NCBI GenBank assembly: GCA_024693415.1
Contig: JAILKX010000003.1
Span: 1-12,780 of the forward strand
Direction: 5' to 3'
DNA from: Bacilli bacterium
Lineage (GTDB): Bacteria; Bacillota_I; Bacilli_A; RFN20; CAG-826
DNA length: 12,780 nt
The notes beneath the pieces are model-generated. The model saw only the letters and a program-made list of their open reading frames with translations, made no database searches and was not told where the DNA came from. This document shows, piece after piece, positions 337-12,248 of the stretch. Both the position numbers and the translations under genes were made by a program. The stretch's first letter is position 1. The number at the start of each line of letters is the position of its first letter.

Positions 337-876
337 TCAATAGTTGACGACGCTCAGCTCGAAGAAGGACTTCGGATGCTTGCAGACCGGGCAGATCTCG
401 GGGGCGTACTTGCCGACGACGATGTGTCCGCAGTTGCGGCATTTCCAGACCGCGACGTCATCGCTCACGAACACCACTCCGCCTTTGACCTTCTCGAGGA
501 GGGCTTTGTAGCGCTCTTCGTGATGCTTCTCGATGGCGGCGACCATGCGGAACTTGGCCGCGATCTCGCGGAAGCCCTCTTCCTCCGCCACGCGGGCGAA
601 TTCGGGGTACATGTCGGTCCATTCGTAGTTCTCGCCGTTGGCGGCGTCGTTCAAATTCTCGAGGGTGGAGGGGACTTCGCCGCCGTGGAGGTATTTGAAC
701 CAGAGCTTGGCGTGCTCCTTCTCGTTGTCGGCGGTTTCGAGGAAGAGAGCGGCGATCTGCTCATATCCTTCCTTCTTCGCCTTGGAGGCGTAGTAGGTGT
801 ATTTGTTGCGGGCCTGGGATTCGCCGGCGAACGCGGCTTCCAGATTCTTCTCGGTTTTGGATCCTTTGAGTTCCAT
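337..876 (-). CDS. rbr: Rubrerythrin
   Basis: Rubrerythrin is a cytoplasmic NADH-linked peroxidase of anaerobes that reduces hydrogen peroxide at a diiron site, fed with electrons through a rubredoxin domain. The 179-residue product has the family's normal length. The ferritin-like domain carries Glu19, the Glu52-x-x-His55 pair, and Glu116-x-x-His119. The C-terminal rubredoxin domain has CRNC (146-149) and CPVC (162-165). I chose the ATG at 876-874 because known rubrerythrins start with the same MxLKGTKTEKNL-like sequence. A TTG four codons upstream directly abuts the Shine-Dalgarno and is unlikely to be used. The Shine-Dalgarno AAGGAGG (889-895) is 12 nt from the ATG, which is rather long. 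A TATAAT lies upstream, so the gene probably has its own promoter, and it ends at a clear terminator. The electron donor may be one of the other rubredoxin-bearing or flavodoxin-like proteins nearby; this is inference. Confidence 0.96.
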
Positions 877-888
877 AGTTGATTGCAA

Positions 889-952: not shown

Positions 953-1747
953 CTATTCTTGGGCTTCCGGGCGCTTTTGGTAGGAAATCCACTCGACGTT
1001 TTCCTCGCTTGAGGAATAGTCGAGCATGAATTCGTAGACCTTGTTCCGGAGGTCCTTCTTCCGCTCGGGGAGGGAGAGGTTCATGTTCGGGTAGATCGGC
1101 TTGGAGACGTGGATCACCGGAAGCGGGCGGCGGTTCTTGAAGAACCGGCGCTGGCGGTAGGTCGTGACCATCGCGACGCAGGGGGCGTTCAGCTCCGCCG
1201 GATAATAGAAGGCGTCGTCGCCAAAGGGCCTGATGTGGGTCGAATAGGGCCAGATGTGGGCCTCGGGGAAGATCGCGATCCCGCACTTCTGCTTGATGCG
1301 GTATTTGACCGCCTCGACGAATTTGGCGTGCTCCTCGGGGTTCTCGGGGATCGCGAGGCACCCAAGCATCGTCACGAGCCACCTGATCCCGCGGATCGAG
1401 GTCGTGTCCTGGTTGCAGACGATGTAGGTCCTTTTGCCGAGGGAGACGTTCACCTGGGTGGTGACGGCGTCGACGATCTGGGTGTGGTTGCCATAGAAGA
1501 AGATGCCGCTATGGCGGAGGGGGCGGATGTTGCGCTTGCCCCTTACCTTGACGCGGTATCCAAGGAACACCACGAACTTCACGATCGGGTAGGCGATCAG
1601 GTAGTAAAGGAACCAGCTGAGGGCGCGGTAGAAGGGGTTTTTGTGGACGTATTTATAGTTCTTCGGCAGCGGGATGCGCTTGATTTTGGTGCCCGAAAAC
1701 TCGTCGTTCAGCATGTCATCGTAGTAGACGGTTTTCTTAGGACTCAT
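953..1747 (-). CDS. 1-acyl-sn-glycerol-3-phosphate acyltransferase (PlsC-like)
   Basis: Enzymes of this family transfer a fatty acyl group to lysophosphatidic acid at the cytoplasmic membrane, making phosphatidic acid for phospholipid and glycolipid synthesis. The 264-residue product has a hydrophobic stretch at about 44-63, the catalytic NHX4D motif as NHTQIVD (His88, Asp93), and the glycerophosphate-binding motif as FPEA (160-163) instead of the usual FPEG. About 40 extra residues precede the membrane segment. The start ATG at 1747 overlaps the end of the upstream glycosyltransferase gene by 11 nt, which indicates translational coupling. The pairing with a diacylglycerol-type glycosyltransferase suggests that both act in membrane lipid synthesis. 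Exact acyl donor and acceptor are not visible. A related lyso-lipid acyltransferase role is possible. Confidence 0.88.
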   Translation of the reverse strand: MSPKKTVYYDDMLNDEFSGTKIKRIPLPKNYKYVHKNPFYRALSWFLYYLIAYPIVKFVVFLGYRVKVRGKRNIRPLRHSGIFFYGNHTQIVDAVTTQVNVSLGKRTYIVCNQDTTSIRGIRWLVTMLGCLAIPENPEEHAKFVEAVKYRIKQKCGIAIFPEAHIWPYSTHIRPFGDDAFYYPAELNAPCVAMVTTYRQRRFFKNRRPLPVIHVSKPIYPNMNLSLPERKKDLRNKVYEFMLDYSSSEENVEWISYQKRPEAQE

Positions 1748-2897
1748 GGCTCTTCTTGTGGATTTCTATCGCCTTGTAATAGAACTGCTCCATCTTGTCC
1801 ATCGAGGTCTCGAAGTCGAAGCTGGAGGCGTAGCCTTGGTAGCCCTTGGCGTTCTCCGCGCGGATATCGGGGTGGTCGATGAAGAAATCGATGTGGGCGG
1901 CGAGGTCCCTCGGCGAGTTGTGCTTGTAGACGTTCAGCTTTCTGTCGATCGCGAAGGTCGAGACCGCGGATTCATGGGAATCGGTGAGGACGGGCGGCAA
2001 GCCGACCGAGACCGCTTCGAGGAAGCTGATCGGCTCGATGTCGACGTGGCCGCAATGGGCGTAGATGTCGCAGTAATTGAGGATCCTGATCATCTCATCG
2101 TGGCTATGGAACCCGAGGATCGGCGGGTTCTTGCACCACTTCTTGCCCCACTTGACCATCTTCTTCTCAAGCGGGCCGGCGCCCGGGAGGATCAAGACGA
2201 TGTCGTCGCGGTGCTTGGAATACTTCATGGCCTTGAGCAGGACCTTGTGCATCTTTTCGCGCGAATAGCGCGCCGTATAGGCGACGACGATCTTGCCTTC
2301 TAACTCTTTGGGCCGCTCGACCTCCATCCGCTTGAAATCGGTCTGGATGCCGTTGGAGATGACTTCGCCGTAATTGGTGAACTTCCACTTCTTCTTGGTG
2401 AGGTCATAGATGAATTGGCTCGGGAAGTGGATCGCGTCCACCTCCTTGAAGAGGGCCTTGTAGAGGACCTTGTACATGATCCAGTTCGCGAAGCGCGAGA
2501 ACTGGAGGAAGATGTGGTTGGTGTAATTCTCGGCCGAGGTGTGCATGGACGCGGTGGTCGCGATCCCATGCTCCCTGCAATAGCGCACCACCTTCGCCGA
2601 GATGTTCCAGGTGAAGTTGAAATGGGCGACGTCGGCGCCTTCTAGGGCCTTCTTGATGGTCTCCATGTCCTTGCCGGAGGCGGGGGCGACGCCATTGTGG
2701 GCGACGTAGTTATTGAACGGGCCGAAGTTGACCTTGTTGACCACGTAATAGCCCTCTTGCCCGATGCGTTCCTTATCGCAGCAGACGACGCGGACATCAT
2801 GGCCTTTGCGCTTCATGGCCTCGATGACGTTCAGCGTCGCGATCGTGGTGCCGTTATTTGGTTCGCCGAGCACGGCGCAGATGAATGTGATGACCAT
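1737..2897 (-). CDS. GT4 glycosyltransferase, probable diacylglycerol glycosyltransferase
   Basis: This 386-residue GT-B enzyme probably transfers a sugar from a nucleotide sugar to a membrane lipid on the cytoplasmic face. The N-terminal Rossmann half opens with a hydrophobic beta strand and GEPNNGTTIATLN (11-23), a Gly-rich acceptor-side loop. The C-terminal half has VAYTARYSREKMHKVLL (205-221) and GPLEKKM. The nucleotide-sugar motif is at 286-312 (DIEPISFLEAV, then GLPPVLTDS, then SAVSTFAID). The last stretch, with Glu288 and Glu294 followed by a Ser-Ala and Phe-Ala segment, resembles monoglucosyl-diacylglycerol synthases of Mollicutes and Bacilli rather than generic GT4 enzymes. A promoter lies just upstream. 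The start ATG has no Shine-Dalgarno. It is cotranscribed with the PlsC-like gene. The family is secure; the lipid substrate is inferred from motif similarity and the neighbour. Confidence 0.85.
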   Translation of the reverse strand: MVITFICAVLGEPNNGTTIATLNVIEAMKRKGHDVRVVCCDKERIGQEGYYVVNKVNFGPFNNYVAHNGVAPASGKDMETIKKALEGADVAHFNFTWNISAKVVRYCREHGIATTASMHTSAENYTNHIFLQFSRFANWIMYKVLYKALFKEVDAIHFPSQFIYDLTKKKWKFTNYGEVISNGIQTDFKRMEVERPKELEGKIVVAYTARYSREKMHKVLLKAMKYSKHRDDIVLILPGAGPLEKKMVKWGKKWCKNPPILGFHSHDEMIRILNYCDIYAHCGHVDIEPISFLEAVSVGLPPVLTDSHESAVSTFAIDRKLNVYKHNSPRDLAAHIDFFIDHPDIRAENAKGYQGYASSFDFETSMDKMEQFYYKAIEIHKKSHES

Positions 2898-3011: not shown

Positions 3012-3039
3012 ATTCCATGGGGGACGTGTATGCGAATTC
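3012..3039 (+). repeat. 28-bp dispersed intergenic repeat, copy A
   Basis: First of three intergenic copies sharing the core GGGGGRCGTGTATGCG. It is 25/28 identical to copy B and 24/28 to copy C. It sits between the terminator of the surface lipoprotein gene and the promoter of the glycosyltransferase gene. Here the right end (ATGCGAATTC, 3030-3039) can pair with GAATCGCAT (3005-3013) to form a hairpin with a one-base bulge. An 11-codon frame, MGDVYANSLL plus stop (3017-3049), starts in it but has no Shine-Dalgarno. Function unknown. Confidence 0.85.
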
Positions 3040-3050
3040 GCTTCTCTAGG

Positions 3051-3090
3051 CAAAGCAAAGCCGCGTTCGGCGATGCAAACCGAACGCGGC
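3051..3090 (-). terminator. Hairpin terminator of the surface lipoprotein gene
   Basis: A perfect 11-bp inverted repeat (GCCGCGTTCGG at 3060-3070 and its complement at 3080-3090) with a 9-nt loop lies 21 nt beyond the stop codon. The tail on the minus strand (CTTTGCTTTG) is only moderately T-rich. Confidence 0.7.
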
Positions 3091-3111
3091 AACGAAGGAC
3101 ATTTTCGGTCC

Positions 3112-5097
3112 CTATTTGACGGACGCGGACCCCTGGTCGCTATAGATCGCGTAGCCGGATGTGGAGTACTTGAGGTTGAAGGTGTAGCTTTCTTTCCCGG
3201 CGGTGATGGTCTTGCTGCCGGCGCTTACGGTGCTGGAGGAGCTCGATTTGGTCATCCCCGAGGTGGATGGGGTGCGCTCGATCCCGCCGAACACCCCGAT
3301 CGTCCCGCCTTTGAAGGCGATCGTCGATTCGGTGTCGATCGCAAACGCCCCGCCGCCATAGGATCCGCCGGCGCTTCCGGGCCCGCAGACGAACACCACC
3401 CCGCCCGTCTGGGTGTAGGTGCCGTTGGAGTCGATGCCGTCGGTGTCGCCGCTTGTGGGCACGCAGACGTCGAGCCGGCCGCCGGAGACGGTGATGTTCG
3501 GGGTATAGGAGCCGCTATTTGCGTTCAGACCATCGTCGGAAGCAAGGACCGTGGTCGTTCCGCCCGAGACGTCGATCAGGTTCCCCTCGACCCCTTCGTA
3601 GGAGCCGGTGACGTTGAGCGTTCCGCCTTTGATGTAGACGGTCTGGTCGGCATGGACGCCATCGTCGGATGCGTAGATCGAGGTGCTGCCGCCGCTAAAT
3701 GTGACATTCCCTAGGGGCGCATACCCGTTTTCGAGGGTCTCGTCCTTGTTCGCGTGGATGCCGTCGTCATAGGCTTTGATGTCGATGGTGCCCCCGTTGA
3801 TCATCACTTGGTTCGCGGATTTGATGCCTTTGGCGGAGTCCGCGGCCTTGTTGGAAGCGCCGCCGCTCATCCCGCCTGGCCCGCCTTGGTTGCCGCCTGG
3901 GCCGCCTTGATTTCCGCCGCCATGCCCGCCAGGCCCCGCATAAGCGGACCTAGAGGAGGAGCTATAGGAAGAATAGGTATTGGTCTTGATCGTAAGCGAG
4001 GTGGGCACGCTTGAATCGGCCTGCTCCACCACCGCGTTATAGGACGCATCGATCCCATCCCCATAGGAATTGATCGTCACGTCCCCGCCGGAAACCGTCA
4101 CGTCGCCGCGCTGATTCCCTTTGGAGGAGATATCGGAATTGCTGGTCTTGAGCCCATCCCCGCCGCAGACGATGTCGATCGCCCCGCTTTTGACGGTGAC
4201 CGAATCGTTGCCGCGGATGCCATGGTTCAAGGCGTTGATCCCCAGCGTCAGGTTCTTGACGTCGACGTCGTCCTTGCCATGGACCCCATTATAGTAATCG
4301 GCATCGATGTAGAGCTCGCCTTTGCCCTTGATGGTGAGGTCGCCGTTTTCGACGTAGATCGCGCCCTTCCCCTGCCCGTCTACGTCTTCGGTATAGGCGG
4401 AACGCTTATCGTAGATATAGTTCTTGGTCCCGCTTTGGGCGGAGATCTCGACCTTGTCGGCGTCTGCTATGAAAATCGGGGAATTCTCGGAATTAGTTAG
4501 GGTCGCGCCCTCTAGGGATATCTCGATCTTCTGATCGGGGGCGTTCACGTAGATCTGCTTGTATTGGCTGCCGGAAATCACGTAGCCGTCGGCATTATCG
4601 CTAGGCGCGGTGATGACGAGGATGCTCGCATCCCCGGCATCCGGGACGTACGAATCGGAATCCTCTTCCGAGGCGGTCGTCCCGCTCGATTTCGTAACGC
4701 TAACCTTGCACGTCGCCTTGTAGGAGCCGTCGGCCGTCGTGACCGTGATGGTCGCGCTCCCTTCGGAGACGCCGGTGACCTTGCCGTTAGCGACCGTGGC
4801 GACGCTTTCGTCGCTTGAGGTCCATGTCACGGCGAGATTGGTCGCGTTATAGGGGACGATCGTGACGTTCAGCTGGGCCGAGGAGCCGGCTGCGATTGAA
4901 AGGGAGGAATAGTTCAAGGAGACGCCGGTGACGGACACGTCGTCTCCGTCATAGTCGATCTCGACGTTCGAATAGGTGGCGTTTCCGCCGTTATTGGCGT
5001 TGCCGCCAGGAAAAACATTGCCCTGCAATGCGCTGCAGGAAGTCGCTAGCCCCATCAAGGAGGCGGCTGCGACGATCAGTAATTTGGTATGTTTCAT
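3112..5097 (-). CDS. Surface lipoprotein with BIG2 domain and Cthe_2159-type carbohydrate-binding domain
   Basis: The product is a 661-residue exported protein that probably binds polysaccharide at the cell surface. A lipoprotein signal peptide ends at Cys21 (LATSC; the -3 residue is Ala where Leu is usual). Residues about 55-135 form a bacterial Ig-like BIG2 domain (VTGVSLNYSSLSI, TWTSSDESVATV, GKVTGVSEGSATITVT). From about 155 to 605 the sequence matches the Cthe_2159 (DUF4353) family, a parallel beta-helix with calcium loops and binding of acidic polysaccharide in the founding member. Acidic turn motifs recur: GDG at 313 and 347, DDG at 444, 478 and 521, and DTDG at 551. A Gly/Asn/Gln/Pro-rich insert at about 388-415 interrupts the helix. 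The Shine-Dalgarno GGAGG (5105-5109) is 7 nt from the ATG. It appears monocistronic, with its own terminator. The actual ligand is not known. Confidence 0.88.
   Translation of the reverse strand: MKHTKLLIVAAASLMGLATSCSALQGNVFPGGNANNGGNATYSNVEIDYDGDDVSVTGVSLNYSSLSIAAGSSAQLNVTIVPYNATNLAVTWTSSDESVATVANGKVTGVSEGSATITVTTADGSYKATCKVSVTKSSGTTASEEDSDSYVPDAGDASILVITAPSDNADGYVISGSQYKQIYVNAPDQKIEISLEGATLTNSENSPIFIADADKVEISAQSGTKNYIYDKRSAYTEDVDGQGKGAIYVENGDLTIKGKGELYIDADYYNGVHGKDDVDVKNLTLGINALNHGIRGNDSVTVKSGAIDIVCGGDGLKTSNSDISSKGNQRGDVTVSGGDVTINSYGDGIDASYNAVVEQADSSVPTSLTIKTNTYSSYSSSSRSAYAGPGGHGGGNQGGPGGNQGGPGGMSGGASNKAADSAKGIKSANQVMINGGTIDIKAYDDGIHANKDETLENGYAPLGNVTFSGGSTSIYASDDGVHADQTVYIKGGTLNVTGSYEGVEGNLIDVSGGTTTVLASDDGLNANSGSYTPNITVSGGRLDVCVPTSGDTDGIDSNGTYTQTGGVVFVCGPGSAGGSYGGGAFAIDTESTIAFKGGTIGVFGGIERTPSTSGMTKSSSSSTVSAGSKTITAGKESYTFNLKYSTSGYAIYSDQGSASVK
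3872..3913 (-). repeat. Tandem 21-bp repeat coding for a Gly-rich linker
   Basis: Two adjacent, near-identical 21-bp units (3872-3892 and 3893-3913) each encode GNQGGPG in frame (residues 395-408 of the lipoprotein). The unit is a multiple of three, so copy number can change without a frameshift and would alter the length of the flexible insert. Confidence 0.75.
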
Positions 5098-5163
5098 AGC
5101 TCACCCTCCGCGTTTACGGGGATATTGTGGATCCCTTGCCCAAAGAATCTTAAAACGTTACCC

Positions 5164-5177
5164 TTAAGTTAACTTAA
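5164..5177. promoter_or_regulatory. 14-bp perfect palindrome in the divergent promoter region
   Basis: TTAAGTTAACTTAA is a perfect palindrome between the divergent lipoprotein (5097, minus) and flavodoxin-like (5301, plus) genes. On the minus strand it lies a few bases upstream of a TAAGAT sequence (5154-5149) that could be the lipoprotein -10. It is therefore placed like an operator. The cognate regulator is not visible. Confidence 0.4.
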
Positions 5178-5204
5178 AGAAATCGAATGAATCGCGCGAA
5201 ACAA

Positions 5205-5232
5205 AATCTATGGGGGGCGTGTATGCGAATTC
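5205..5232 (+). repeat. 28-bp dispersed intergenic repeat, copy B
   Basis: Second copy of the core GGGGGRCGTGTATGCG, 25/28 identical to copy A, between two divergent genes. It contains an 11-codon frame, MGGVYANSIF plus stop (5210-5242), of exactly the same length as in copy A, again without a Shine-Dalgarno. GAATCGC (5189-5195) can pair with GCGAATTC (5225-5232), the same arms as in copy A but with a much longer loop. Confidence 0.85.
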
Positions 5233-5254
5233 CATTTTTTGAGCAAATTCATGG

Positions 5255-5266
5255 ACTGAGTTCAGT
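5255..5266. promoter_or_regulatory. Small inverted repeat upstream of the flavodoxin-like gene
   Basis: ACTGA (5255-5259) and TCAGT (5262-5266) form a dyad with a 2-nt centre, flanked by GG and CC in near symmetry, 35 nt before the start codon. It could be an operator. The promoter itself is unclear; GACAAT at 5275-5280 is the best -10 candidate. Confidence 0.25.
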
Positions 5267-5300
5267 TCCGGGCGGACAATAAGAAAAAAAGGAAGCAGCC

Positions 5301-5693
5301 ATGAATATCCAGATCAGATACCTATCGAAGCTCGGCCACACCAAGGCGATCGCGGAAGCCATCGCCGAAGGGGCGAAGTCCACCGCCGTCTCCATTTCGG
5401 AGGAGCCGGAGCTCAAGGAAAAAGCCGATATCCTGTTCCTCGGCGGCGCGCCTTACGCCAACGTCATGGACAAGGAGCTCAGGGAATACGCCAAGAAGCT
5501 CACGCCGGAACTCGTCGGAGAGGTGATCCTCTTCACCACTTCCAACTGGTCGAAGCGCACCGTGAAGGCGCTCAGGAAGATCCTGATGGGGAACCTTGTG
5601 AACGTGCGGGAAGGATATTTCTTCGCGCAGGCGTTCCAGATTGAGAAAAGAAAAGAGGCCGCGAAGGAATTCGGGGCCTCGTCAATCGAATAA
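5301..5693 (+). CDS. Flavodoxin-like protein
   Basis: Flavodoxins are small cytoplasmic FMN-binding electron carriers. The first strand is followed by SKLGHTKAIAEAIAEG (9-24), which has the position and helix of the FMN phosphate-binding loop, although the usual T/S-x-T-G-N-T is altered to S-K-L-G-H-T. FLGGAPYA (46-53) and LFTTSNWSK (77-85) fit the second and third flavin-contacting loops. At 130 residues it is a little shorter than a classical short-chain flavodoxin. The Shine-Dalgarno AGGAAG (5290-5295) is 5 nt from the ATG. The gene faces the DUF1295 gene end to end: their stop codons are directly adjacent (5691-5693 and 5696-5694), with no hairpin between. It could serve the neighbouring redox enzymes as electron donor, which is inference. 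FMN binding is likely but not certain given the altered loop. Confidence 0.75.
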   Translation: MNIQIRYLSKLGHTKAIAEAIAEGAKSTAVSISEEPELKEKADILFLGGAPYANVMDKELREYAKKLTPELVGEVILFTTSNWSKRTVKALRKILMGNLVNVREGYFFAQAFQIEKRKEAAKEFGASSIE

Positions 5694-6665
5694 TCAGGCA
5701 GCGTCTTGCTCTTTTTCCTTCTTCTCATAGGGACGCCAGGGAAGGGGGATGAAGCGCGAGACCTTTTTCTTATATTCGGCGTACTCGGGGTATTTGCCGC
5801 CCGAGATCGCCTCGCCCATCGTCGAGCTGCCGACGAAGAGGAGGACGAGGAACGCCGCCCCCATGAACGACCAGTTGAAGACGCCGACGCCAGCGCCAAT
5901 CGAGAAGATGTAGAAGCAGATCCAGAACAGCTGCTCGCCGAGGTAATTGGGGTGGCGGGAATAGTTCCATAAGCCGGTGGTGTTGAATCCTTTGCTGTAG
6001 GGCTCAGGGAGCTCTTCGAGCTTCTTGCCCTCATTGATCATGCCCCACTTCTTGTCCTGGAAGATGCGCTGCTGCTCATCGGCGACGGTCTCAAGGAGCA
6101 ATGCGCCGAAGGTGAGGCCCATCGCCACGAAATCGATCCAGTTGAGCGGCTTTTCCGAGCCGACGGAGGCGAGCATCGGGAAGGTGATGATCAGGACGAG
6201 GAGATTCTGGTAGACGCTGATGAAGAAGAGGTCGAAGGCCGCCCAAACTAGGCGGGACTTGAAGTATTTGGTCTTGCGGAGCACCTTCCAGCGGTAATCC
6301 TCTTCGCCGGTCCAGAATTTGATGGAATAGGCGCCTTTGCGGCCGAAGTTGATGGTGAGCCTGATGCCCCAAAGGGTCGCGAGGATCGCCATGATGATAA
6401 GGCGAGGGGTCATTCCGCCCATCGCGGCCATCACCCAAACGTAGGCGATCGGCAGGATCGACCAAAGCTTGTCCATCTGCGAGTTGTTGAGCGTGATCTC
6501 GCCGACGATGAAGCAATAGGCCGCGGCCGATGCGGTGATGATAAGCAGGACGATCGCGATGTCGGTCTGCAATTGGGTCAGCTGCGGGCCGACCGCGTAA
6601 TAGAGGATCGGGCAGGCGACGATCGCCGCTACCGCAATCACGGATACGATGATGTTTTTGACCAT
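5694..6665 (-). CDS. DUF1295 integral membrane protein (steroid 5-alpha-reductase/ICMT-like fold)
   Basis: The 323-residue product has several hydrophobic segments (about 4-25, 36-57, 68-105, 142-166, 176-194, 246-282). It carries the family hallmark GLWNYSRHPNYLGE (231-244) near the C-terminus, preceded by ETVADEQQRIF (192-202). This hallmark is shared by DUF1295 proteins, isoprenylcysteine methyltransferases and NAD(P)H-dependent steroid reductases, where it helps bind the cofactor. The likely role is therefore a membrane reductase or methyltransferase acting on a lipid, but the reaction is unknown. The C-terminus is charged and cytoplasmic-looking. The Shine-Dalgarno GGAGG (6677-6681) is 11 nt from the ATG, and a TATAAT lies at 6727-6722. 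The 3' end abuts the convergent flavodoxin-like gene without any intergenic base, so the two transcripts probably overlap. Confidence 0.88.
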   Translation of the reverse strand: MVKNIIVSVIAVAAIVACPILYYAVGPQLTQLQTDIAIVLLIITASAAAYCFIVGEITLNNSQMDKLWSILPIAYVWVMAAMGGMTPRLIIMAILATLWGIRLTINFGRKGAYSIKFWTGEEDYRWKVLRKTKYFKSRLVWAAFDLFFISVYQNLLVLIITFPMLASVGSEKPLNWIDFVAMGLTFGALLLETVADEQQRIFQDKKWGMINEGKKLEELPEPYSKGFNTTGLWNYSRHPNYLGEQLFWICFYIFSIGAGVGVFNWSFMGAAFLVLLFVGSSTMGEAISGGKYPEYAEYKKKVSRFIPLPWRPYEKKEKEQDAA

Positions 6666-6676
6666 AATGGAATCAA

Positions 6677-6727
6677 CCTCCGCTCATTCGATTCACGAAT
6701 GTTCGTATATAATGCCCCGAAATTATA
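6677..6727 (-). promoter_or_regulatory. Promoter and inverted repeat of the DUF1295 gene
   Basis: A perfect TATAAT is at 6727-6722 on the minus strand; the -35 region is poor. In the leader, CATTCG (6685-6690) and CGAATG (6696-6701) form a 6-bp inverted repeat with a 5-nt spacer just before the Shine-Dalgarno (6677-6681). The same hexamer recurs at 6754-6759 and 6786-6791. Confidence 0.45.
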
Positions 6728-6901
6728 GGCGATTCCGTTTCCATATGCACACACATTCGTTTTCGGTTCATGATTGTTGACTAATCGAATGTCAATCTTT
6801 GCTGCGAACCAAAAACGGGCCGCAAATAAAACTTGCAGTGCATATTTCAGGAAAATTGACGTTTCCCTTGTTAAACTTATTTGCGTAAGGAGATCCATAA
6901 T

Positions 6902-7243
6902 ATGAAACTAGCAATCTGCTATAACCCATCCGACAATACCATTTTCCAGCACTTCGGCCAGACCGAGCACTTTCTGATCGTCGACACCAAAACCGGCGAA
7001 AGGTCGCTCATCGATAACGGCGGCAACTCCCACAAGGCCCTTGTGCTTTATCTTAAAGGCTTAGCCGTCGACACCGTCATCGCCGGCGGAATGGGCGACC
7101 GCGCCATCGAATTGCTGAAACAGGCCGGAATCAACGTGATCCCTGGCGTCAGAGGCTCGGCCGAAGAGGCGATCAAAGCATTCGAGGAAGGCAAGCTCGA
7201 AGGGAATTTCAACGTCATCCATAAGTGCGACTGCGACGACTGA
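6902..7243 (+). CDS. NifX/NifB-type iron-molybdenum cluster-binding family protein
   Basis: This 113-residue protein belongs to the dinitrogenase iron-molybdenum cofactor biosynthesis family, small RNase H-like fold proteins that bind or carry metal clusters. Seen in the sequence are HFGQTEHFLIVD (17-28), the Gly-Asn-Ser-His loop (41-44), VIAGGMGDRAIELLKQAGI (59-77) and GVRGSAEEAI. A terminal Cys-x-Cys (109, 111) in an acidic tail could add metal ligands. No nitrogenase genes are present, so the role is probably general metal-cluster handling or redox homeostasis, as for stand-alone members in anaerobes. I chose the ATG at 6902 because AAGGAG (6887-6892) lies 9 nt upstream. An in-frame TTG at 6881 precedes that Shine-Dalgarno and is unlikely. 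A possible extended -10 (TGTTAAACT, 6869-6877) is the best promoter candidate. The gene ends in a strong terminator. Confidence 0.88.
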   Translation: MKLAICYNPSDNTIFQHFGQTEHFLIVDTKTGERSLIDNGGNSHKALVLYLKGLAVDTVIAGGMGDRAIELLKQAGINVIPGVRGSAEEAIKAFEEGKLEGNFNVIHKCDCDD

Positions 7244-7264
7244 TCGCTTAAAAGACATCATTCC

Positions 7265-7292
7265 AAAGCGCGGCGGTTCCGCGCTTTTTCTT
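7265..7292 (+). terminator. Rho-independent terminator of the NifX-like gene
   Basis: AAAGCGCGG (7265-7273) and CCGCGCTTT (7279-7287) make a 9-bp stem with a 5-nt loop, running into TTTTT at 7285-7289 and then CTT. It is the clearest terminator in the window. In the reverse direction the tail is poor in T. Confidence 0.88.
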
Positions 7293-7305
7293 ATGTATTT
7301 CTATA

Positions 7306-7333
7306 AATCCACGGGGGACGTGTATGCGTTTTC
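7306..7333 (+). repeat. 28-bp dispersed intergenic repeat, copy C
   Basis: Third copy of the core GGGGGRCGTGTATGCG, 24/28 identical to copy A. It lies between the terminator of the NifX-like gene and the 3' end of the convergent acyltransferase remnant. The ATG seen in copies A and B is ACG here and no stop follows at the same place, so a conserved peptide is unlikely. The right flank is TTTTC instead of AATTC, and the hairpin arms of copy A are absent. Confidence 0.82.
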
Positions 7334-7347
7334 GGCAAAAAACTTAG

Positions 7348-7716
7348 TTAAGCCGCCTGCTCTTTGCCCTGCTTCCTCTTCCTAATCGCGCCGATTGCGA
7401 ATTCGACGAGGATGCATGCCAAAACGAATAATGTGACCGTGAGCAGGGCGTATACGGGGCAGGCCCATTTTCCGAGTATCGAGAAATCGCTCCGGAAGAA
7501 AATCATGTGGACCGCATACATGAATATGAGGTGGGTAAGATATAGGAATTCGCTCCGATCGCCTAACCAAACGAGGCAGAATTCGATGGGCTTCACCTTG
7601 GAGAGGAGCCTCATGAGATTATGGATGGCATAGGTCCCGAAGACGCGGGCGCTTGTGCCGCCGTCGGTCCTGCCGCTGCTCTGCCCGATTGAAAACATGA
7701 CGTAAGGCAAAGGCAC
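7348..7716 (-). pseudogene. Remnant of an acyltransferase-3 type membrane protein (C-terminal end)
   Basis: The open frame encodes 122 residues from a GTG, but only the last part looks like a known protein. WLGDRSEFLYLTHLIFMYAV (about 50-69) resembles the conserved serine-to-histidine segment near the C-terminus of acyltransferase-3 (O-acetyltransferase) proteins, and it is followed by one more membrane helix (about 85-110) and a basic tail. Intact members have about 10 membrane helices and 330-400 residues, so the catalytic N-terminal part is missing. There is no Shine-Dalgarno at the GTG. The frame stays open upstream to about 7800 without an ATG. A strong promoter is present upstream but leads into a different frame. 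I read this as a deletion remnant. A small two-helix membrane protein that is still expressed is the alternative. Confidence 0.55.
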
Positions 7717-7748
7717 ATCAATGGGATCGCGGCGATCTTTTTGTTCAT
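7611..7748 (-). other. Possible 45-codon ORF starting with a lipoprotein-like signal sequence
   Basis: Directly downstream of a strong promoter, an ATG at 7748 opens a 45-codon frame. Its N-terminus (MNKKIAAIPLMCLCLTSC) has two lysines, a hydrophobic stretch and a lipobox-like LTSC with Cys18. The rest is Ala/Pro/Ser-rich, and it overlaps the acyltransferase remnant in another frame. It may be the surviving start of a deleted lipoprotein gene, a tiny lipopeptide, or chance. Confidence 0.25.
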
Positions 7749-7755
7749 CGAGCCC

Positions 7756-7783
7756 ATTATAACATATGGAAAAATGGCGCCAA
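7756..7783 (-). promoter_or_regulatory. Strong SigA-type promoter with extended -10
   Basis: On the minus strand TTGGCG (7783-7778), a 16-nt spacer and TATAAT (7761-7756) preceded by TGT (an extended -10) form a good promoter. An ATG sits only 7 nt past the -10 (7748), so a transcript starting at the usual distance would be leaderless. Confidence 0.55.
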
Positions 7784-7789
7784 GTCGCC
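7770..7789 (-). terminator. Probable weak terminator of the OhrR/MBL-rubredoxin/bacterioferritin-like operon
   Basis: A 4-bp GC stem (GGCG 7776-7779, CGCC 7786-7789) with a 6-nt loop is followed on the minus strand by A and TTTTT (7774-7770), 32 nt after the last stop codon. The stem is short, so some read-through is likely. It overlaps the next promoter. Confidence 0.45.
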
Positions 7790-7821
7790 TTGATGCCAGT
7801 TTATCGATCCCTCTGTCGGCT

Positions 7822-8274
7822 TTATTCGCCGAGCATCTCGATCAGATAGTTCTCATATCCGATCTCTTTGATGAGGTTCAGGTGCATCCTAACCCAATTG
7901 TAATGCTCCTGCTCATCCACGATGAACTTCTGGATCATCGCCCTGGTGACATAGTCATCCTCAAAAAGGGCGAGGGCCTTGGACATTTCAGGCAGAGCCT
8001 GGGCGCTGTCCTTGCAATCGTATTCGAGCATCTCCTTGATGTCGGTGATGACCGGGTACTTCTCGATGTCTACCGCCGGGGTCTCGCCGAGCTCGATGAG
8101 GCGGGCGTTGCACTCCTTGGCTTCGTCCCACTCCTCCTGCGATTCGGCCATGATCTTGTCGGCGAGCTTCTTGAAGCCCCTCTGGCTCAATAGCTGCGCA
8201 TGGATGCTGTGTTGCTGGCTGTTGCCGAACCATCCCTTCGCAAACGCTTTGAGCAATTCAACTTTCTGATTCAT
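7822..8274 (-). CDS. Bacterioferritin-like protein with a degenerate ferroxidase site
   Basis: The 150-residue product aligns by eye along its full length with bacterioferritins: HAQLLSQRGFKKLADKI (25-41), DIKEMLEYD (78-86), DDYVTRAMI (106-114), DEQEHYNW (120-127) and IGYENYL (138-144). Bacterioferritins store iron and oxidise Fe(II) with peroxide or oxygen at a diiron site. Of the usual ligands, Glu48, Glu121 and His124 are kept. The positions of Glu18, His54 and Glu94 in the E. coli protein appear to hold Trp15, Glu51 and Ser90, and the haem-ligand Met52 position holds Trp49. It is therefore unlikely to work as a standard ferroxidase and may be a non-catalytic subunit, use other ligands, or have another role. 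The ATG at 8274 has a strong Shine-Dalgarno AAGGAGG (8283-8289) 8 nt upstream. It follows the MBL-rubredoxin gene by 23 nt in the same operon. Confidence 0.82.
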   Translation of the reverse strand: MNQKVELLKAFAKGWFGNSQQHSIHAQLLSQRGFKKLADKIMAESQEEWDEAKECNARLIELGETPAVDIEKYPVITDIKEMLEYDCKDSAQALPEMSKALALFEDDYVTRAMIQKFIVDEQEHYNWVRMHLNLIKEIGYENYLIEMLGE

Positions 8275-8297
8275 TTTTTCTTCCTCCTTATGCATCA

Positions 8298-9242
8298 TTA
8301 AGCTGCGTTGAACTTTGATTTGGGCTGCTTGCATCTCGGGCAACGCCAATCCTCAGGCAGCTCTTCAAACGGAACATTGTCGTGTTCGGCGGGATCATAG
8401 ACGTATCCGCACACCGAGCAGACGTATTTGCCGGTTTTGGTTTTAAACGTGATCTCGCCCACGGGGATCGTCTCCACCGGTTTGGATAAATCGATGACCC
8501 TTTTGGCTTCGAGGCTCTCGGGCCCCTGCGGGGTGTGGGTCCCAAGGTAGACGGTCGGGTTATGGGAGACGAATTCCCTGACCCGGTCAAAGGTGACCCT
8601 CGCCGCGGGAAGATCATCGAAGACGATCGAGAGCTTGTTCTTATATAGTGCCTCATCGACGTAGGTGATGTCGGCCTGGAACATATAGAAGATGCCCTCT
8701 TCCTTATCCTCGGCGATGACGAGCGAATTCCCTCTGGTATGGCCTTTGGCCTTGACCATATGGATGCCGGGGACGATGGTCTGCGATTCCGGGAAATTAT
8801 GGTAAGCGCCATCGGTGAAATAGACGGGGACGATATTATCGACGCCCTGAAGCTCTTCGGCGCCGAGTTCCTCGGCGTTCACGTAGATCTTGGCGTTCGG
8901 GAAATCCTTGACGCGGCCGGAATGGTCGCTGTGGCGATGGGTGAGCAGGATCTTGGTGACCTGCTCTGGCTTATAGCCAAGCGCGATCAAGTTATCTATA
9001 TAATCGCCCGCATCCTCCCCGGTGAAGCCGAGGGAATTCTCGTCGGGGACTTCTATCGGAGTGCCTTTCGGGAAGCCGGTGTCCACGAGGATCACCTCAT
9101 CCCCGGTGTCGATCAGATAGTTTTGGAGGCTGCCGCGATACCTTTCCTTGATGTCGAAGCGCTCCATCCCTTCCTCGCCGCCAAAGGCGAACGGGGCGGA
9201 ATAGAATCCGTCTTTCCTGAATTGAATGGCTTTGATTTTCAT
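8298..9242 (-). CDS. Metallo-beta-lactamase fold hydrolase fused to rubredoxin
   Basis: The 314-residue product has two domains. Residues 1-260 are a metallo-beta-lactamase fold of the lactonase/glyoxalase II kind, with metal motif THRHSDH (His102, His104, Asp106, His107), His168 in GHTRG, Asp191 and His236 in LGTHTPQG. HxHxDH points to a zinc-type hydrolase rather than the HxExD diiron site of flavodiiron proteins. Residues 270-314 are a rubredoxin, with CSVCGY (275-280) and CPRC (301-304) binding one iron. The fusion suggests an electron-transfer function or redox control added to a hydrolase. The substrate is unknown. The start ATG at 9242 overlaps the stop of the OhrR-like gene as ATGA, with AAGGAG (9253-9258) 10 nt upstream; an in-frame TTG at 9251 lies too close to that site. 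It is the middle gene of the operon. Confidence 0.9.
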
Positions 9243-9682
9243 TTTGCCCAATCTCCTTCCAATAGTTTGTAGAGCAATTCCCTGTATCGGTCGAATTCCT
9301 CATCGCTCATCCAGTGCTCATCGTATAGCGTCTTGGGCACTTCGATGGCTTTGGTCTTCAGATCTCGGCCTTTTTCGGTGATTGCGATGACGAGCTTTCT
9401 TTTGTCCTCGCTATCCCTAGAGATATCGATCAGGCCTTTCTTTTCCATGATCCTGAGCGTGTCGGAAAGGGTGTTCGGTTTCAAGAACAAAGCCTCGCAG
9501 ATCTCCTTTTCGCTCACCCTCTCCTTCTCCCACATCACCATCATCACGATGTATTGGGTATAGGTGAGGTCGATCTTCCGCAAAAGGGGTTGGTAGCGCC
9601 TGAGGATCTTATTGAACACCGCATACGTCGGGAAACATATTTGGCTTTCTAGGAGCAATAAGGTCTCTTCGTCGTATCTCAT
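9239..9682 (-). CDS. OhrR-like MarR-family peroxide-sensing repressor
   Basis: The product is a 147-residue winged-helix dimeric repressor. The N-terminus has Cys16 in LESQICF, followed by Tyr20, Tyr30 and Tyr41. This is the same spacing as the reactive Cys15 and the three tyrosines that hold it in Bacillus subtilis OhrR, so it is very probably a one-cysteine organic peroxide or hypochlorite sensor. The DNA-binding region is [29 protein letters not shown] (about 56-84), with the wing around DSEDKRK. In characterised OhrR proteins oxidation of this cysteine releases DNA. The promoter just upstream contains an 18-bp perfect palindrome, so it probably represses its own operon, the MBL-rubredoxin and bacterioferritin-like genes. 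There is no Shine-Dalgarno: the ATG lies 6 nt after the -10, so the mRNA is predicted to be leaderless. No ohrA gene is seen here. Confidence 0.85.
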
Positions 9683-9688
9683 GAGCAG

Positions 9689-9717
9689 ATTATATCGGTA
9701 CCGATATATTTATTCAA
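9689..9717 (-). promoter_or_regulatory. SigA-type promoter of the OhrR-like operon
   Basis: TTGAAT (9717-9712) and TATAAT (9694-9689) are separated by 17 nt on the minus strand. The predicted start is at about 9682, the first base of the OhrR-like ATG. A palindrome fills the spacer and overlaps the -10. Confidence 0.8.
9691..9708. promoter_or_regulatory. 18-bp perfect palindromic operator
   Basis: TATATCGGTACCGATATA is a perfect palindrome that covers the promoter spacer and part of the -10. This is the position expected for a repressor that blocks RNA polymerase, and the OhrR-like protein encoded next to it is the obvious candidate. The GC core differs from the A/T-rich OhrR box of B. subtilis. 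Confidence 0.7.
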
Positions 9718-11198: not shown

Positions 11199-12051
11199 TT
11201 TGCCTTTTGCTCCTTTCGATGTAGACCATGATCTGCTCTAGATCAGGCTCAACCGGCTCAATGCCGCGTTCGCGGAAGGCCTCTTTCCTATCGGCGCGGA
11301 TCAATCCTTCGATATGGCCGTCGAATTCCTTGTAGGCGATGTATTCCCGCAGCAGGTCCCTATTGCAGGATTTGTCTTTGACGAATAAATAGGAAGCGAT
11401 GAAATCGTTTTTGTTCCCGGTGTAGATGATCTCGCCGTCATGGATATAGGTGATGGCGGAGGCGCATTTGTCGAGATCGCTCGTGATGTGGGTGGAAAAA
11501 AGTATGGCCCTGTCTTTATTTTTGACGATCTGGCGGAAGATGTCGAGGATCTCGTCCCTCGAAACGGGATCAAGTCCCGAGGTCGGCTCATCGAGGATCA
11601 ATAGCTCCGCGTGGTGGGACAAGGCGACGGCCACCGAATACTTGACCTTCATGCCGCTAGAGAGTTCCTCGAGCTTCTTGTCGATGTCGAGGTTGAAGAG
11701 GCGGCACGCCTCGGCAAACTTCTGCTCATCGAACTTCTCATAGAACCTCTTCGTGACGTCCATCAGCTGGCGGATGGTCTTGTTCGGATAGTAATTGAGC
11801 TCGCTCAAAGCGAAGCCGATCCGCTGCTTATTTTCGAGTTCGTTCTCGCTCATGTCGGTGCCGAAGGCGCAGATCTTCCCGCTTTCGTAATGGACCAGGT
11901 TCATGATGCACTTAAGCGTCGTCGTCTTGCCGGCGCCGTTGCGGCCGATAAAGCCCATGATCTGGCCGGGTTTCACTTCGAAGGAGACGCCTTTCAGGGA
12001 AAAGGACGGGTAGGTTTTCCTGACTCCGTCGAGCGTTAATAGGGCGTTCAT
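11179..12051 (-). CDS. ABC transporter ATP-binding protein
   Basis: The 290-residue ATPase powers the adjacent permease at the cytoplasmic side of the membrane. Walker A is GRNGAGKT (36-43), the signature is LSSGM (130-134; the usual LSGGQ is altered), Walker B is LLILDEP (150-156), the D-loop is SGLD (158-161) and the switch histidine is His188 in FSTH. The Q-loop region is around ALSELNYYP (81-89). About 80 residues follow the core domain and contain no recognised motif. The start ATG overlaps the stop of the AbrB-type gene as ATGA, and GGAGGAG (12060-12066) lies 8 nt upstream. This gene is the middle of a three-gene operon with the AbrB-type regulator and permease. Confidence 0.93.
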   Translation of the reverse strand: MNALLTLDGVRKTYPSFSLKGVSFEVKPGQIMGFIGRNGAGKTTTLKCIMNLVHYESGKICAFGTDMSENELENKQRIGFALSELNYYPNKTIRQLMDVTKRFYEKFDEQKFAEACRLFNLDIDKKLEELSSGMKVKYSVAVALSHHAELLILDEPTSGLDPVSRDEILDIFRQIVKNKDRAILFSTHITSDLDKCASAITYIHDGEIIYTGNKNDFIASYLFVKDKSCNRDLLREYIAYKEFDGHIEGLIRADRKEAFRERGIEPVEPDLEQIMVYIERSKRQNESFDL

Positions 12052-12248
12052 TTCATCTTCTCCTCCGCCATTGCATAAAACATATCCGCCTTCAGGATGG
12101 CGATTCCTCTGGTTTTGTCACCCATAACCATCAGCGTTTCGCCCTCTTCGATGCCGAACATCTCCCGGGCTTCCTTCGGTATCGTGATCTGGCCTTTCGG
12201 CCCGACTTTGACGCTTACGATAAAGCGGTCCTGCCCTATGTCTTTCAT
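12048..12248 (-). CDS. AbrB/SpoVT-family DNA-binding regulator
   Basis: The 66-residue product has the swapped-hairpin AbrB DNA-binding domain: VSVKVGPKGQITIPKEAREMFGIEEG at about 11-36, then ETLMVMGDKTRGIAIL. Proteins of this type act as dimers or tetramers. This one heads an operon with an ABC-2 transporter and most likely autoregulates it. The ATG at 12248 has only weak Shine-Dalgarno-like sequence (AAAAGTAAG) upstream, which coincides with a tandem 9-bp repeat. A MazE-like antitoxin role is less likely because no toxin gene is adjacent. Confidence 0.88.
   Translation of the reverse strand: MKDIGQDRFIVSVKVGPKGQITIPKEAREMFGIEEGETLMVMGDKTRGIAILKADMFYAMAEEKMK

What the first reader, a model, noticed from the sequence alone, without database searches (positions are those of the whole stretch)
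3012..7333. Three copies of a 28-bp intergenic element with core GGGGGRCGTGTATGCG
The element occurs at 3012-3039, 5205-5232 and 7306-7333. 22 of 28 positions are invariant. Every copy is between genes and all are in the same orientation on the plus strand, although the settings differ (tandem, divergent and convergent gene pairs). It does not match a terminator, promoter, IS end or CRISPR. Spacing is about 2.1-2.2 kb. Possible roles are a DNA-binding site for a chromosome-organising protein, a DNA uptake signal, a small mobile repeat, or part of an untranslated RNA. Conserved orientation relative to the replication axis rather than to genes would favour a chromosome-architecture or uptake role.
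Basis: partly seen in the sequence, partly recalled or inferred. Interest (0 to 1): 0.75.

Follow-up and report, generated by a model that had tools for sequence, protein, structure and literature searches.

The report
Genome-wide DNA tag in Bacilli
The three repeats belong to a roughly 27-base DNA tag that relatives of this bacterium carry hundreds of times, inside and between genes, much like the self-recognition tags that a few other bacteria use when taking up DNA.

Summary
The three 28-bp copies are at the stated places, 22 of 28 columns are invariant, and they are not chance (0 of 200 shuffles reach three hits). They are not a local repeat. In the closest held relative (G001, Erysipelotrichaceae MAG RUG11821) a matrix seeded only from these three copies and trained on one half of 394 kb finds 50 and 56 sites of at least 14 bits in the other half, against 0 and 1 for the reversed matrix. 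Sites lie on both strands. They are densest between genes, and also frequent inside genes beyond what the encoded proteins explain (27 and 28 sites against 2.5 and 1.5 with synonymous codons shuffled). The core is the most over-represented 10-mer of those stretches. The motif is confined to part of one family and drifts between members. No RNA, hairpin or insertion signature was seen. Copy 1 keeps its place in three relatives although the flanks have diverged.

Best reading: a DNA uptake (USS/DUS-like) sequence, which would be new for Bacilli. Main rival: a genome-wide site for a chromosome-organising protein. Function is inferred, not shown, and one strong carrier (G180) shows no ComEA or ComEC gene.

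The parts
3012..3039 (+). Copy 1 of the motif (core 3019-3034), between two minus-strand genes; 122 bp upstream of the glycosyltransferase start at 2897
   Evidence: same place and orientation in G001 (112 bp), G180 (122 bp) and G002 (107 bp)
5205..5232 (+). Copy 2 of the motif (core 5212-5227), between divergent genes
   Evidence: no element of 14 bits or more near the three closest orthologues of the flavodoxin-like neighbour
7306..7333 (+). Copy 3 of the motif (core 7313-7328), between convergent genes
   Evidence: only one of 16 genomes has a relative of the upstream gene, and it has no element nearby
1737..2897 (-). Glycosyltransferase gene downstream of copy 1, used for the position test
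   Evidence: Pfam Glycos_transf_1; homologues
3112..5097 (-). Gene between copies 1 and 2: Cthe_2159 carbohydrate-binding domain and Big_2 domain protein
5301..5693 (+). Flavodoxin-like gene next to copy 2
6902..7243 (+). Nitro_FeMo-Co domain gene upstream of copy 3
7348..7698 (-). Gene whose 3' end lies next to copy 3 (called by script, not searched against families)

Best explanation
The element is one instance of a genome-wide, non-palindromic DNA recognition motif, about AAWnnRn-GGGGRCGTGTATnCG-WTTTCG: an A-tract, a G-rich core with CGTGTAT, and a T-tract. SHOWN in relatives: sites by the hundred per genome by extrapolation, selected or driven at the DNA level, tolerated in genes, densest between genes near 3' ends, clade-limited and drifting between genomes. 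INFERRED: it works like a DNA uptake sequence. A surface DNA-binding part of an uptake machine (ComEA feeding ComEC, perhaps with a Tad-type pilus) would prefer DNA that carries the motif; recombination of the imported strands would keep restoring motif-bearing alleles, and this biased uptake would build up and maintain copies through the genome. No receptor and no uptake were shown.
For: Held-out excess 50 vs 0 and 56 vs 1. Excess over a synonymous-codon null. Most over-represented 10-mer of the G001 stretches: GGACGTGTAT 15 against 0.31 expected. No strand preference, no clustering (69/62; neighbours 74 opposite, 65 same). Intergenic enrichment, 32 of 131 sites in about 10% of the sequence, and lower density in codon-typical genes (19 in 127.7 kb against 33 in 103.8 kb), as reported for USS in constrained coding DNA (PMC7811141, passages). 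GC-rich core flanked by AT tracts with local base interactions, as described for USS. Clade-limited with drifting letters, like dialects. Information of the aligned sites, about 23 bits summed from the columns and inflated by the score cut-off, exceeds the roughly 12.5 bits needed to address 131 sites in 394 kb (my arithmetic). A ComEA-sized HHH_3 frame and ComEC lie on the same contig in 9 of the 13 motif carriers tested.
Against: No uptake data. Uptake sequences are reported from two families only (passages). The machinery does not track the motif: TadA-like ATPase in 193 of 224 and ComEC in 138 of 224 family genomes, and motif-free G013, G098 and G106 have ComEA-sized and ComEC frames too. 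The strong carrier G180 has no ComEC match and no ComEA-sized HHH_3 match, and G146 has no ComEC match (drafts, so absence is weak). Canonical ComGB passes its cut-off in 3 of 26 genomes only. Codon-atypical genes, a poor proxy for newly acquired DNA, are not depleted but richest. No bias to gene ends inside genes, unlike Pasteurellaceae (PMC2346458, Findings section). One site keeps its place down to 48% protein identity, which also fits a local function. The weakest bin (14-18 bits) shows no intergenic enrichment (2 of 39).
Confidence: 0.47

Rival explanations
1. A genome-wide binding site for a sequence-specific chromosome-organising or nucleoid-associated protein that contacts A-tract, core and T-tract along one face of the DNA and works from hundreds of sites.
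For: Dependence between adjacent columns suggests protein-DNA contacts; intergenic and 3'-end preference; one position kept across diverged genomes; short clusters such as three copies within 75 bp in G001.
Against: The motif is long and asymmetric; no strand switch or domain is visible on contigs up to 98 kb, though draft contigs cannot test whole-chromosome patterns; no candidate protein was identified or searched for.
Confidence: 0.3
2. A recombination or translocation signal like Chi or KOPS, read by a DNA motor.
For: Density of about one per few kb and presence in coding DNA.
Against: Known signals of this kind are short and strand-skewed (recalled). Here about 27 bases carry information and strands are mixed; the most skewed contigs have 19 of 28 plus and 21 of 31 minus.
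Confidence: 0.07
3. A small mobile repeat or the decayed remains of one.
For: Intergenic preference and occasional tandem copies.
Against: Excess in genes with proteins held fixed, 20 of 27 one-sided coding sites in ungapped alignments, no paired columns, kept position of copy 1.
Confidence: 0.05
4. Part of an untranslated RNA or a terminator.
For: Copies 1 and 3 lie next to terminator-like hairpins (read by eye).
Against: No Rfam match up to E = 1, no covariation, no unusual folding, sites on both strands within genes.
Confidence: 0.03

Closest known systems
Uptake signal sequence (USS) of Pasteurellaceae
   Same: Genome-wide, asymmetric, GC-rich core with AT tracts, both strands, sparser in constrained coding DNA (USS side from passages of PMC7811141)
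   Different: Unrelated letters; AT tracts on both sides of the core; lower density; no gene-end bias inside genes; different phylum; uptake not shown
DNA uptake sequence (DUS) of Neisseriaceae and its dialects
   Same: Over-represented motif with related variants among relatives (DUS dialects seen only in a title and abstract start, PMC7371117)
   Different: The DUS is a 12-mer (PMC2346458); this motif is longer and more degenerate; uptake not shown
Sites of nucleoid occlusion or terminus-organising proteins (Noc, SlmA, MatP)
   Same: Repeated protein-binding DNA sites on the chromosome
   Different: Those are palindromic and far fewer (recalled); this motif is asymmetric and much denser
HIP1 of cyanobacteria
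   Same: A highly iterated word in genes and between genes (abstract start, PMC4390886)
   Different: HIP1 is an 8-base palindrome tied to methyltransferases; this motif is neither short nor palindromic

Membership tests
DNA uptake sequence (USS/DUS) | Strong genome-wide over-representation, hundreds of copies | tested here: met
   in G001; count per genome is an extrapolation from 394 kb
DNA uptake sequence (USS/DUS) | Both orientations, in coding and non-coding DNA | tested here: met
   69/62 strands, 99 of 131 in genes
DNA uptake sequence (USS/DUS) | Raises uptake of DNA that carries it | not testable with these tools
   Needs a competent strain
DNA uptake sequence (USS/DUS) | Carrier encodes DNA uptake machinery | tested here: inconclusive
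   ComEA-sized frame and ComEC on one contig in 9 of 13 carriers, but neither found in draft G180
DNA uptake sequence (USS/DUS) | Scarce in newly acquired DNA (reported trend) | tested here: inconclusive
   Only proxies: codon-atypical genes richest; genes with matches in four partly sampled relatives 0.218 per kb, others 0.261
DNA uptake sequence (USS/DUS) | Bias to gene ends inside genes (reported for Pasteurellaceae, not defining) | tested here: not met
   Decile counts 4 9 10 16 19 12 11 14 14 8
REP/MITE-type mobile repeat | Hairpin or inverted ends, insertion signature | tested here: not met
   no IS or MITE library searched
Rfam RNA families | Covariance-model match | tested here: not met
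   0 matches up to E = 1
Chi/KOPS-type polar signals | Short and strand-skewed along replichores | tested here: not met
   Long motif, mixed strands on contigs up to 98 kb; no closed genome
Chromosome-organising protein site (Noc, SlmA, MatP type) | Palindromic site read by a known protein, with domain-wise chromosome distribution | tested here: inconclusive
   Not palindromic; domains not testable on draft contigs; proteins not searched

The most novel reading that the evidence does not exclude
An independently evolved DNA-uptake-sequence system, the first in Bacilli (presumably cells with one membrane), with dialects among relatives and perhaps read by a ComEA or Tad-pilus component instead of a type IVa minor pilin.
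Probability: 0.4. Interest if true: 0.87.

Novelty: new variant of a known kind. Interest (0 to 1): 0.67.

Why it matters
Strong sequence preference in DNA uptake is described for two families, Pasteurellaceae and Neisseriaceae (PMC7811141, passages). A comparable genome-wide tag in Bacilli would show that self-tagging for gene exchange also arose in another kind of cell envelope, would imply that these uncultured bacteria transform, and would offer several related dialects for finding the receptor. If it is instead a protein site, it is a long, asymmetric, abundant chromosome site whose reader is unknown to me.

Tried and rejected
Own-genome scan: none held. Rfam: no match. RNA folds of the three copies on both strands: z -1.4 to +0.1. 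Viral contigs: exact 20-base pattern, 0 hits; weak, as viruses of this clade may be poorly sampled. Sigma-54 promoter: weighed by eye and from recall, spacing off by one, dropped. Group II intron target: one triple copy follows an intron-like 3' end (L165, by eye); not tested further. Motif against uptake genes: ComEC, ComGB and HHH_3 (26 genomes each) and TadA do not separate carriers from non-carriers. Another strongly over-represented word in motif-poor G098, G135, G106: none with a comparable z-score in the 140-200 kb examined of each. A matrix re-trained inside G111 was noisier (58 vs 5 control at 14 bits) and is not relied on. In G111 the core is not among the top over-represented words. 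G123, G129, G189 and G146 have weaker or no excess for the 16-base core with 3 mismatches (26 vs 10, 21 vs 5, 15 vs 5, 5 vs 6). Weak coding hits could be a codon artefact; the synonymous null answers this at 16 bits and above, while at 10 bits the null reaches 19 of 65 and 12.7 of 74. Literature: (0 papers), 34, 53 and 59 on uptake sequences, of which 33 and 59 named Firmicutes and 53 Gram-positive, and on the clade name and intergenic repeats; no listed paper reports such a motif in Firmicutes. The library lacks most subscription papers and all preprints.

Biases: the G001 stretches come from five long contigs that each held core hits and are richer in them (15 in 394 kb) than the genome (66 in 2.3 Mb), so genome-wide density is probably lower than on these contigs. 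G180 stretches were chosen for hits, and the G111 contigs held hits. Loci L165-L210 used were chosen for hits. Gene calls are from my own script.
Full report
What is there. The copies are real: 3012-3039, 5205-5232 and 7306-7333, plus strand, 22 of 28 columns invariant. They exceed chance: 3 hits with up to 3 mismatches, 0.21 expected, 0 of 200 shuffles reaching 3. All three are intergenic by my gene calls. The window has no Rfam match up to E = 1, and no whole genome is held for it.

Relatives. By the letters flanking the core, most of these look like chance matches, but two genomes recur: four loci of RUG11821 (Erysipelotrichaceae, handle G001) and two of SUG2074 (Bacillales, handle G002). 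The core with up to 2 mismatches occurs 66 times in G001 and 18 times in G002; the pattern read backwards gives 2 and 2. G001 is also the best DNA match to window 5100-9700 among 224 family genomes (76% over 914 bases). With a 27-base pattern and up to 3 mismatches, 42 of 224 family genomes match. The highest counts are G180 67, G001 59, G002 28, G111 19, G185 19, G123 16, G189 12 and G202 9; the backward control totals 10 over all 224. With the 16-base core and up to 3 mismatches the excess over control is strong in G180 (88 vs 4), G111 (23 vs 1) and G185 (20 vs 2), weaker in G129 (21 vs 5), G189 (15 vs 5) and G123 (26 vs 10), and absent in G146 (5 vs 6). The trait is limited to part of the family and its letters drift, for example often CATG for CGTG in G111 and G123.

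Density and consensus. On 394 kb of long G001 contigs an iterated matrix finds 131 sites of at least 14 bits against 1 for the reversed matrix. Because iteration can overfit, I seeded a matrix only with the three window copies, trained it on one half and tested it on the other: 50 vs 0 and 56 vs 1. Carried elsewhere at 16 bits or more it gives 77 vs 1 in 297 kb of G180 (contigs chosen for hits), 24 vs 0 in 260 kb of G111, 1 vs 0 in 140 kb of motif-poor G098, and the 3 known copies in the window. GGGACGTGTA and GGACGTGTAT are the most over-represented 10-mers of the G001 stretches. G098, G135 and G106 show no word of comparable z-score, and in G111 the core is not among the top words. Consensus: A-tract at -7 to -5, purine at -2, GGGGRC, CGTGTATnCG, WTTTCG.

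It is a DNA motif. With codons shuffled among synonyms, so that proteins stay the same, genes in the two held-out halves give 2.5 and 1.5 sites of 16 bits or more where 27 and 28 are seen; shuffled intergenic DNA gives 0 and 0 where 16 and 12 are seen. In 193 aligned sites of G001 and G180 the 25 strongest column dependences all join columns at most 3 apart, which suits protein contacts and not a stem. RNA folds of the three copies are unremarkable.

Distribution in G001. Strands 69/62. Spacing CV 1.05 and 0.93 at two thresholds; neighbours 74 opposite, 65 same. Intergenic sites are 32 of 131 although about 10% of the sequence is non-coding; the share rises with score, from 2 of 39 (14-18 bits) to 11 of 17 (above 30 bits). 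Density is 1.9 per kb in convergent, 0.93 in tandem and 0.41 in divergent regions (8, 19 and 4 sites), and in tandem regions sites lie nearer the upstream gene's 3' end (mean 25% of the way). In genes, 72 of 99 sites have the core in one codon phase. Inside genes of G001 and G180 there is no bias to gene ends. Codon-typical genes hold fewer sites (19 in 127.7 kb) than the middle (34 in 124.6 kb) and codon-atypical thirds (33 in 103.8 kb).

Evolution. Copy 1 lies 122 bp upstream of a glycosyltransferase. Of 8 genomes with an orthologue of at least 48% identity, G001 (112 bp), G180 (122 bp) and G002 (107 bp) have an element in the same orientation and G111 has one at 168 bp on the other strand; G170, G158, G129 and G189 have none upstream. 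Six homologues of 28-34% identity have none within 200 bp upstream. Between window, G001 and G180 the intergenic flanks have otherwise diverged. For copies 2 and 3 the neighbouring genes have relatives in few genomes (5 of 16 and 1 of 16), and the four loci scanned, of seven matches to the first and one to the second, have no element of 14 bits or more. In orthologous coding pairs, 8 of 42 distinct sites of 16 bits or more are shared (one offset by two bases) and 34 are one-sided. Seven of the 34 have no scored partner; of the other 27, 20 lie in ungapped alignments. So coding sites seem to come and go largely by substitution, and some are kept.

Mechanism. The pattern resembles uptake sequences: abundant, asymmetric, AT-flanked, sparser in coding DNA, with variants among relatives. 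The comparison rests on passages of PMC7811141, the abstract and Findings section of PMC2346458 and passages of PMC12616744 and PMC5031613. Motif carriers have parts of an uptake machine: a ComEA-sized HHH_3 frame and ComEC on one contig in 9 of 13 carriers tested, for example G001 C21:10662-10853 and 11454-12146. G001 and G180 have an operon with a T2SSE ATPase, two platform-like proteins and a small pilin-like protein. In G001 the ATPase has a clear Pfam match and one platform protein a sub-threshold one; the Tad label is my reading. A Tad locus is required for transformation in Micrococcus luteus (PMC6668835, passage). Against this: the genes are common in the family beyond the carriers (TadA-like 193 of 224, ComEC 138 of 224), G180 has neither ComEC nor a ComEA-sized frame in its draft, canonical ComGB passes its cut-off in 3 of 26 genomes, and no receptor is identified. 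I give the uptake reading 0.47 and a chromosome-protein site 0.3.

Verdict. The feature is much larger than the finding: a genome-wide DNA tag in a clade of Bacilli. It looks most like a DNA uptake sequence; whether it is one needs an uptake assay.

Noticed in passing
L165:1-330 (G001 contig C53): Three copies of the motif lie 29 and 30 bases apart, directly after what looks by eye like the 3' end of a group II intron (label recalled, not searched).
   Followed up: no
G001 C13 (L299) and G180 C12 (L298): A compact operon with a T2SSE-type ATPase, two platform-like proteins and a 52-aa pilin-like protein, read as a Tad-type pilus in Bacilli.
   Followed up: partly
G001 and G180 sites, core positions 3-6: The middle of the core comes in discrete forms (GGAC 84, GGGC 22, ACCC 16, ATAC 10 of 193 sites), perhaps sub-dialects or a shape code.
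   Followed up: no
L232:13910, L232:15835, L242:7707, L248:19107, L239:11017: In several places the A-tract flank of the element (AAATAA or AAATAG) supplies the stop codon of the preceding gene (distances of 8).
   Followed up: no
window 337-888 and 7822-9682: Oxygen-stress-type genes: rubrerythrin, a ferritin-like protein, a metallo-beta-lactamase fold with rubredoxin domain, and a MarR-family regulator.
   Followed up: no
window 3050-3100 and 7265-7292: Terminator-like hairpins close to copies 1 and 3, seen by eye.
   Followed up: no
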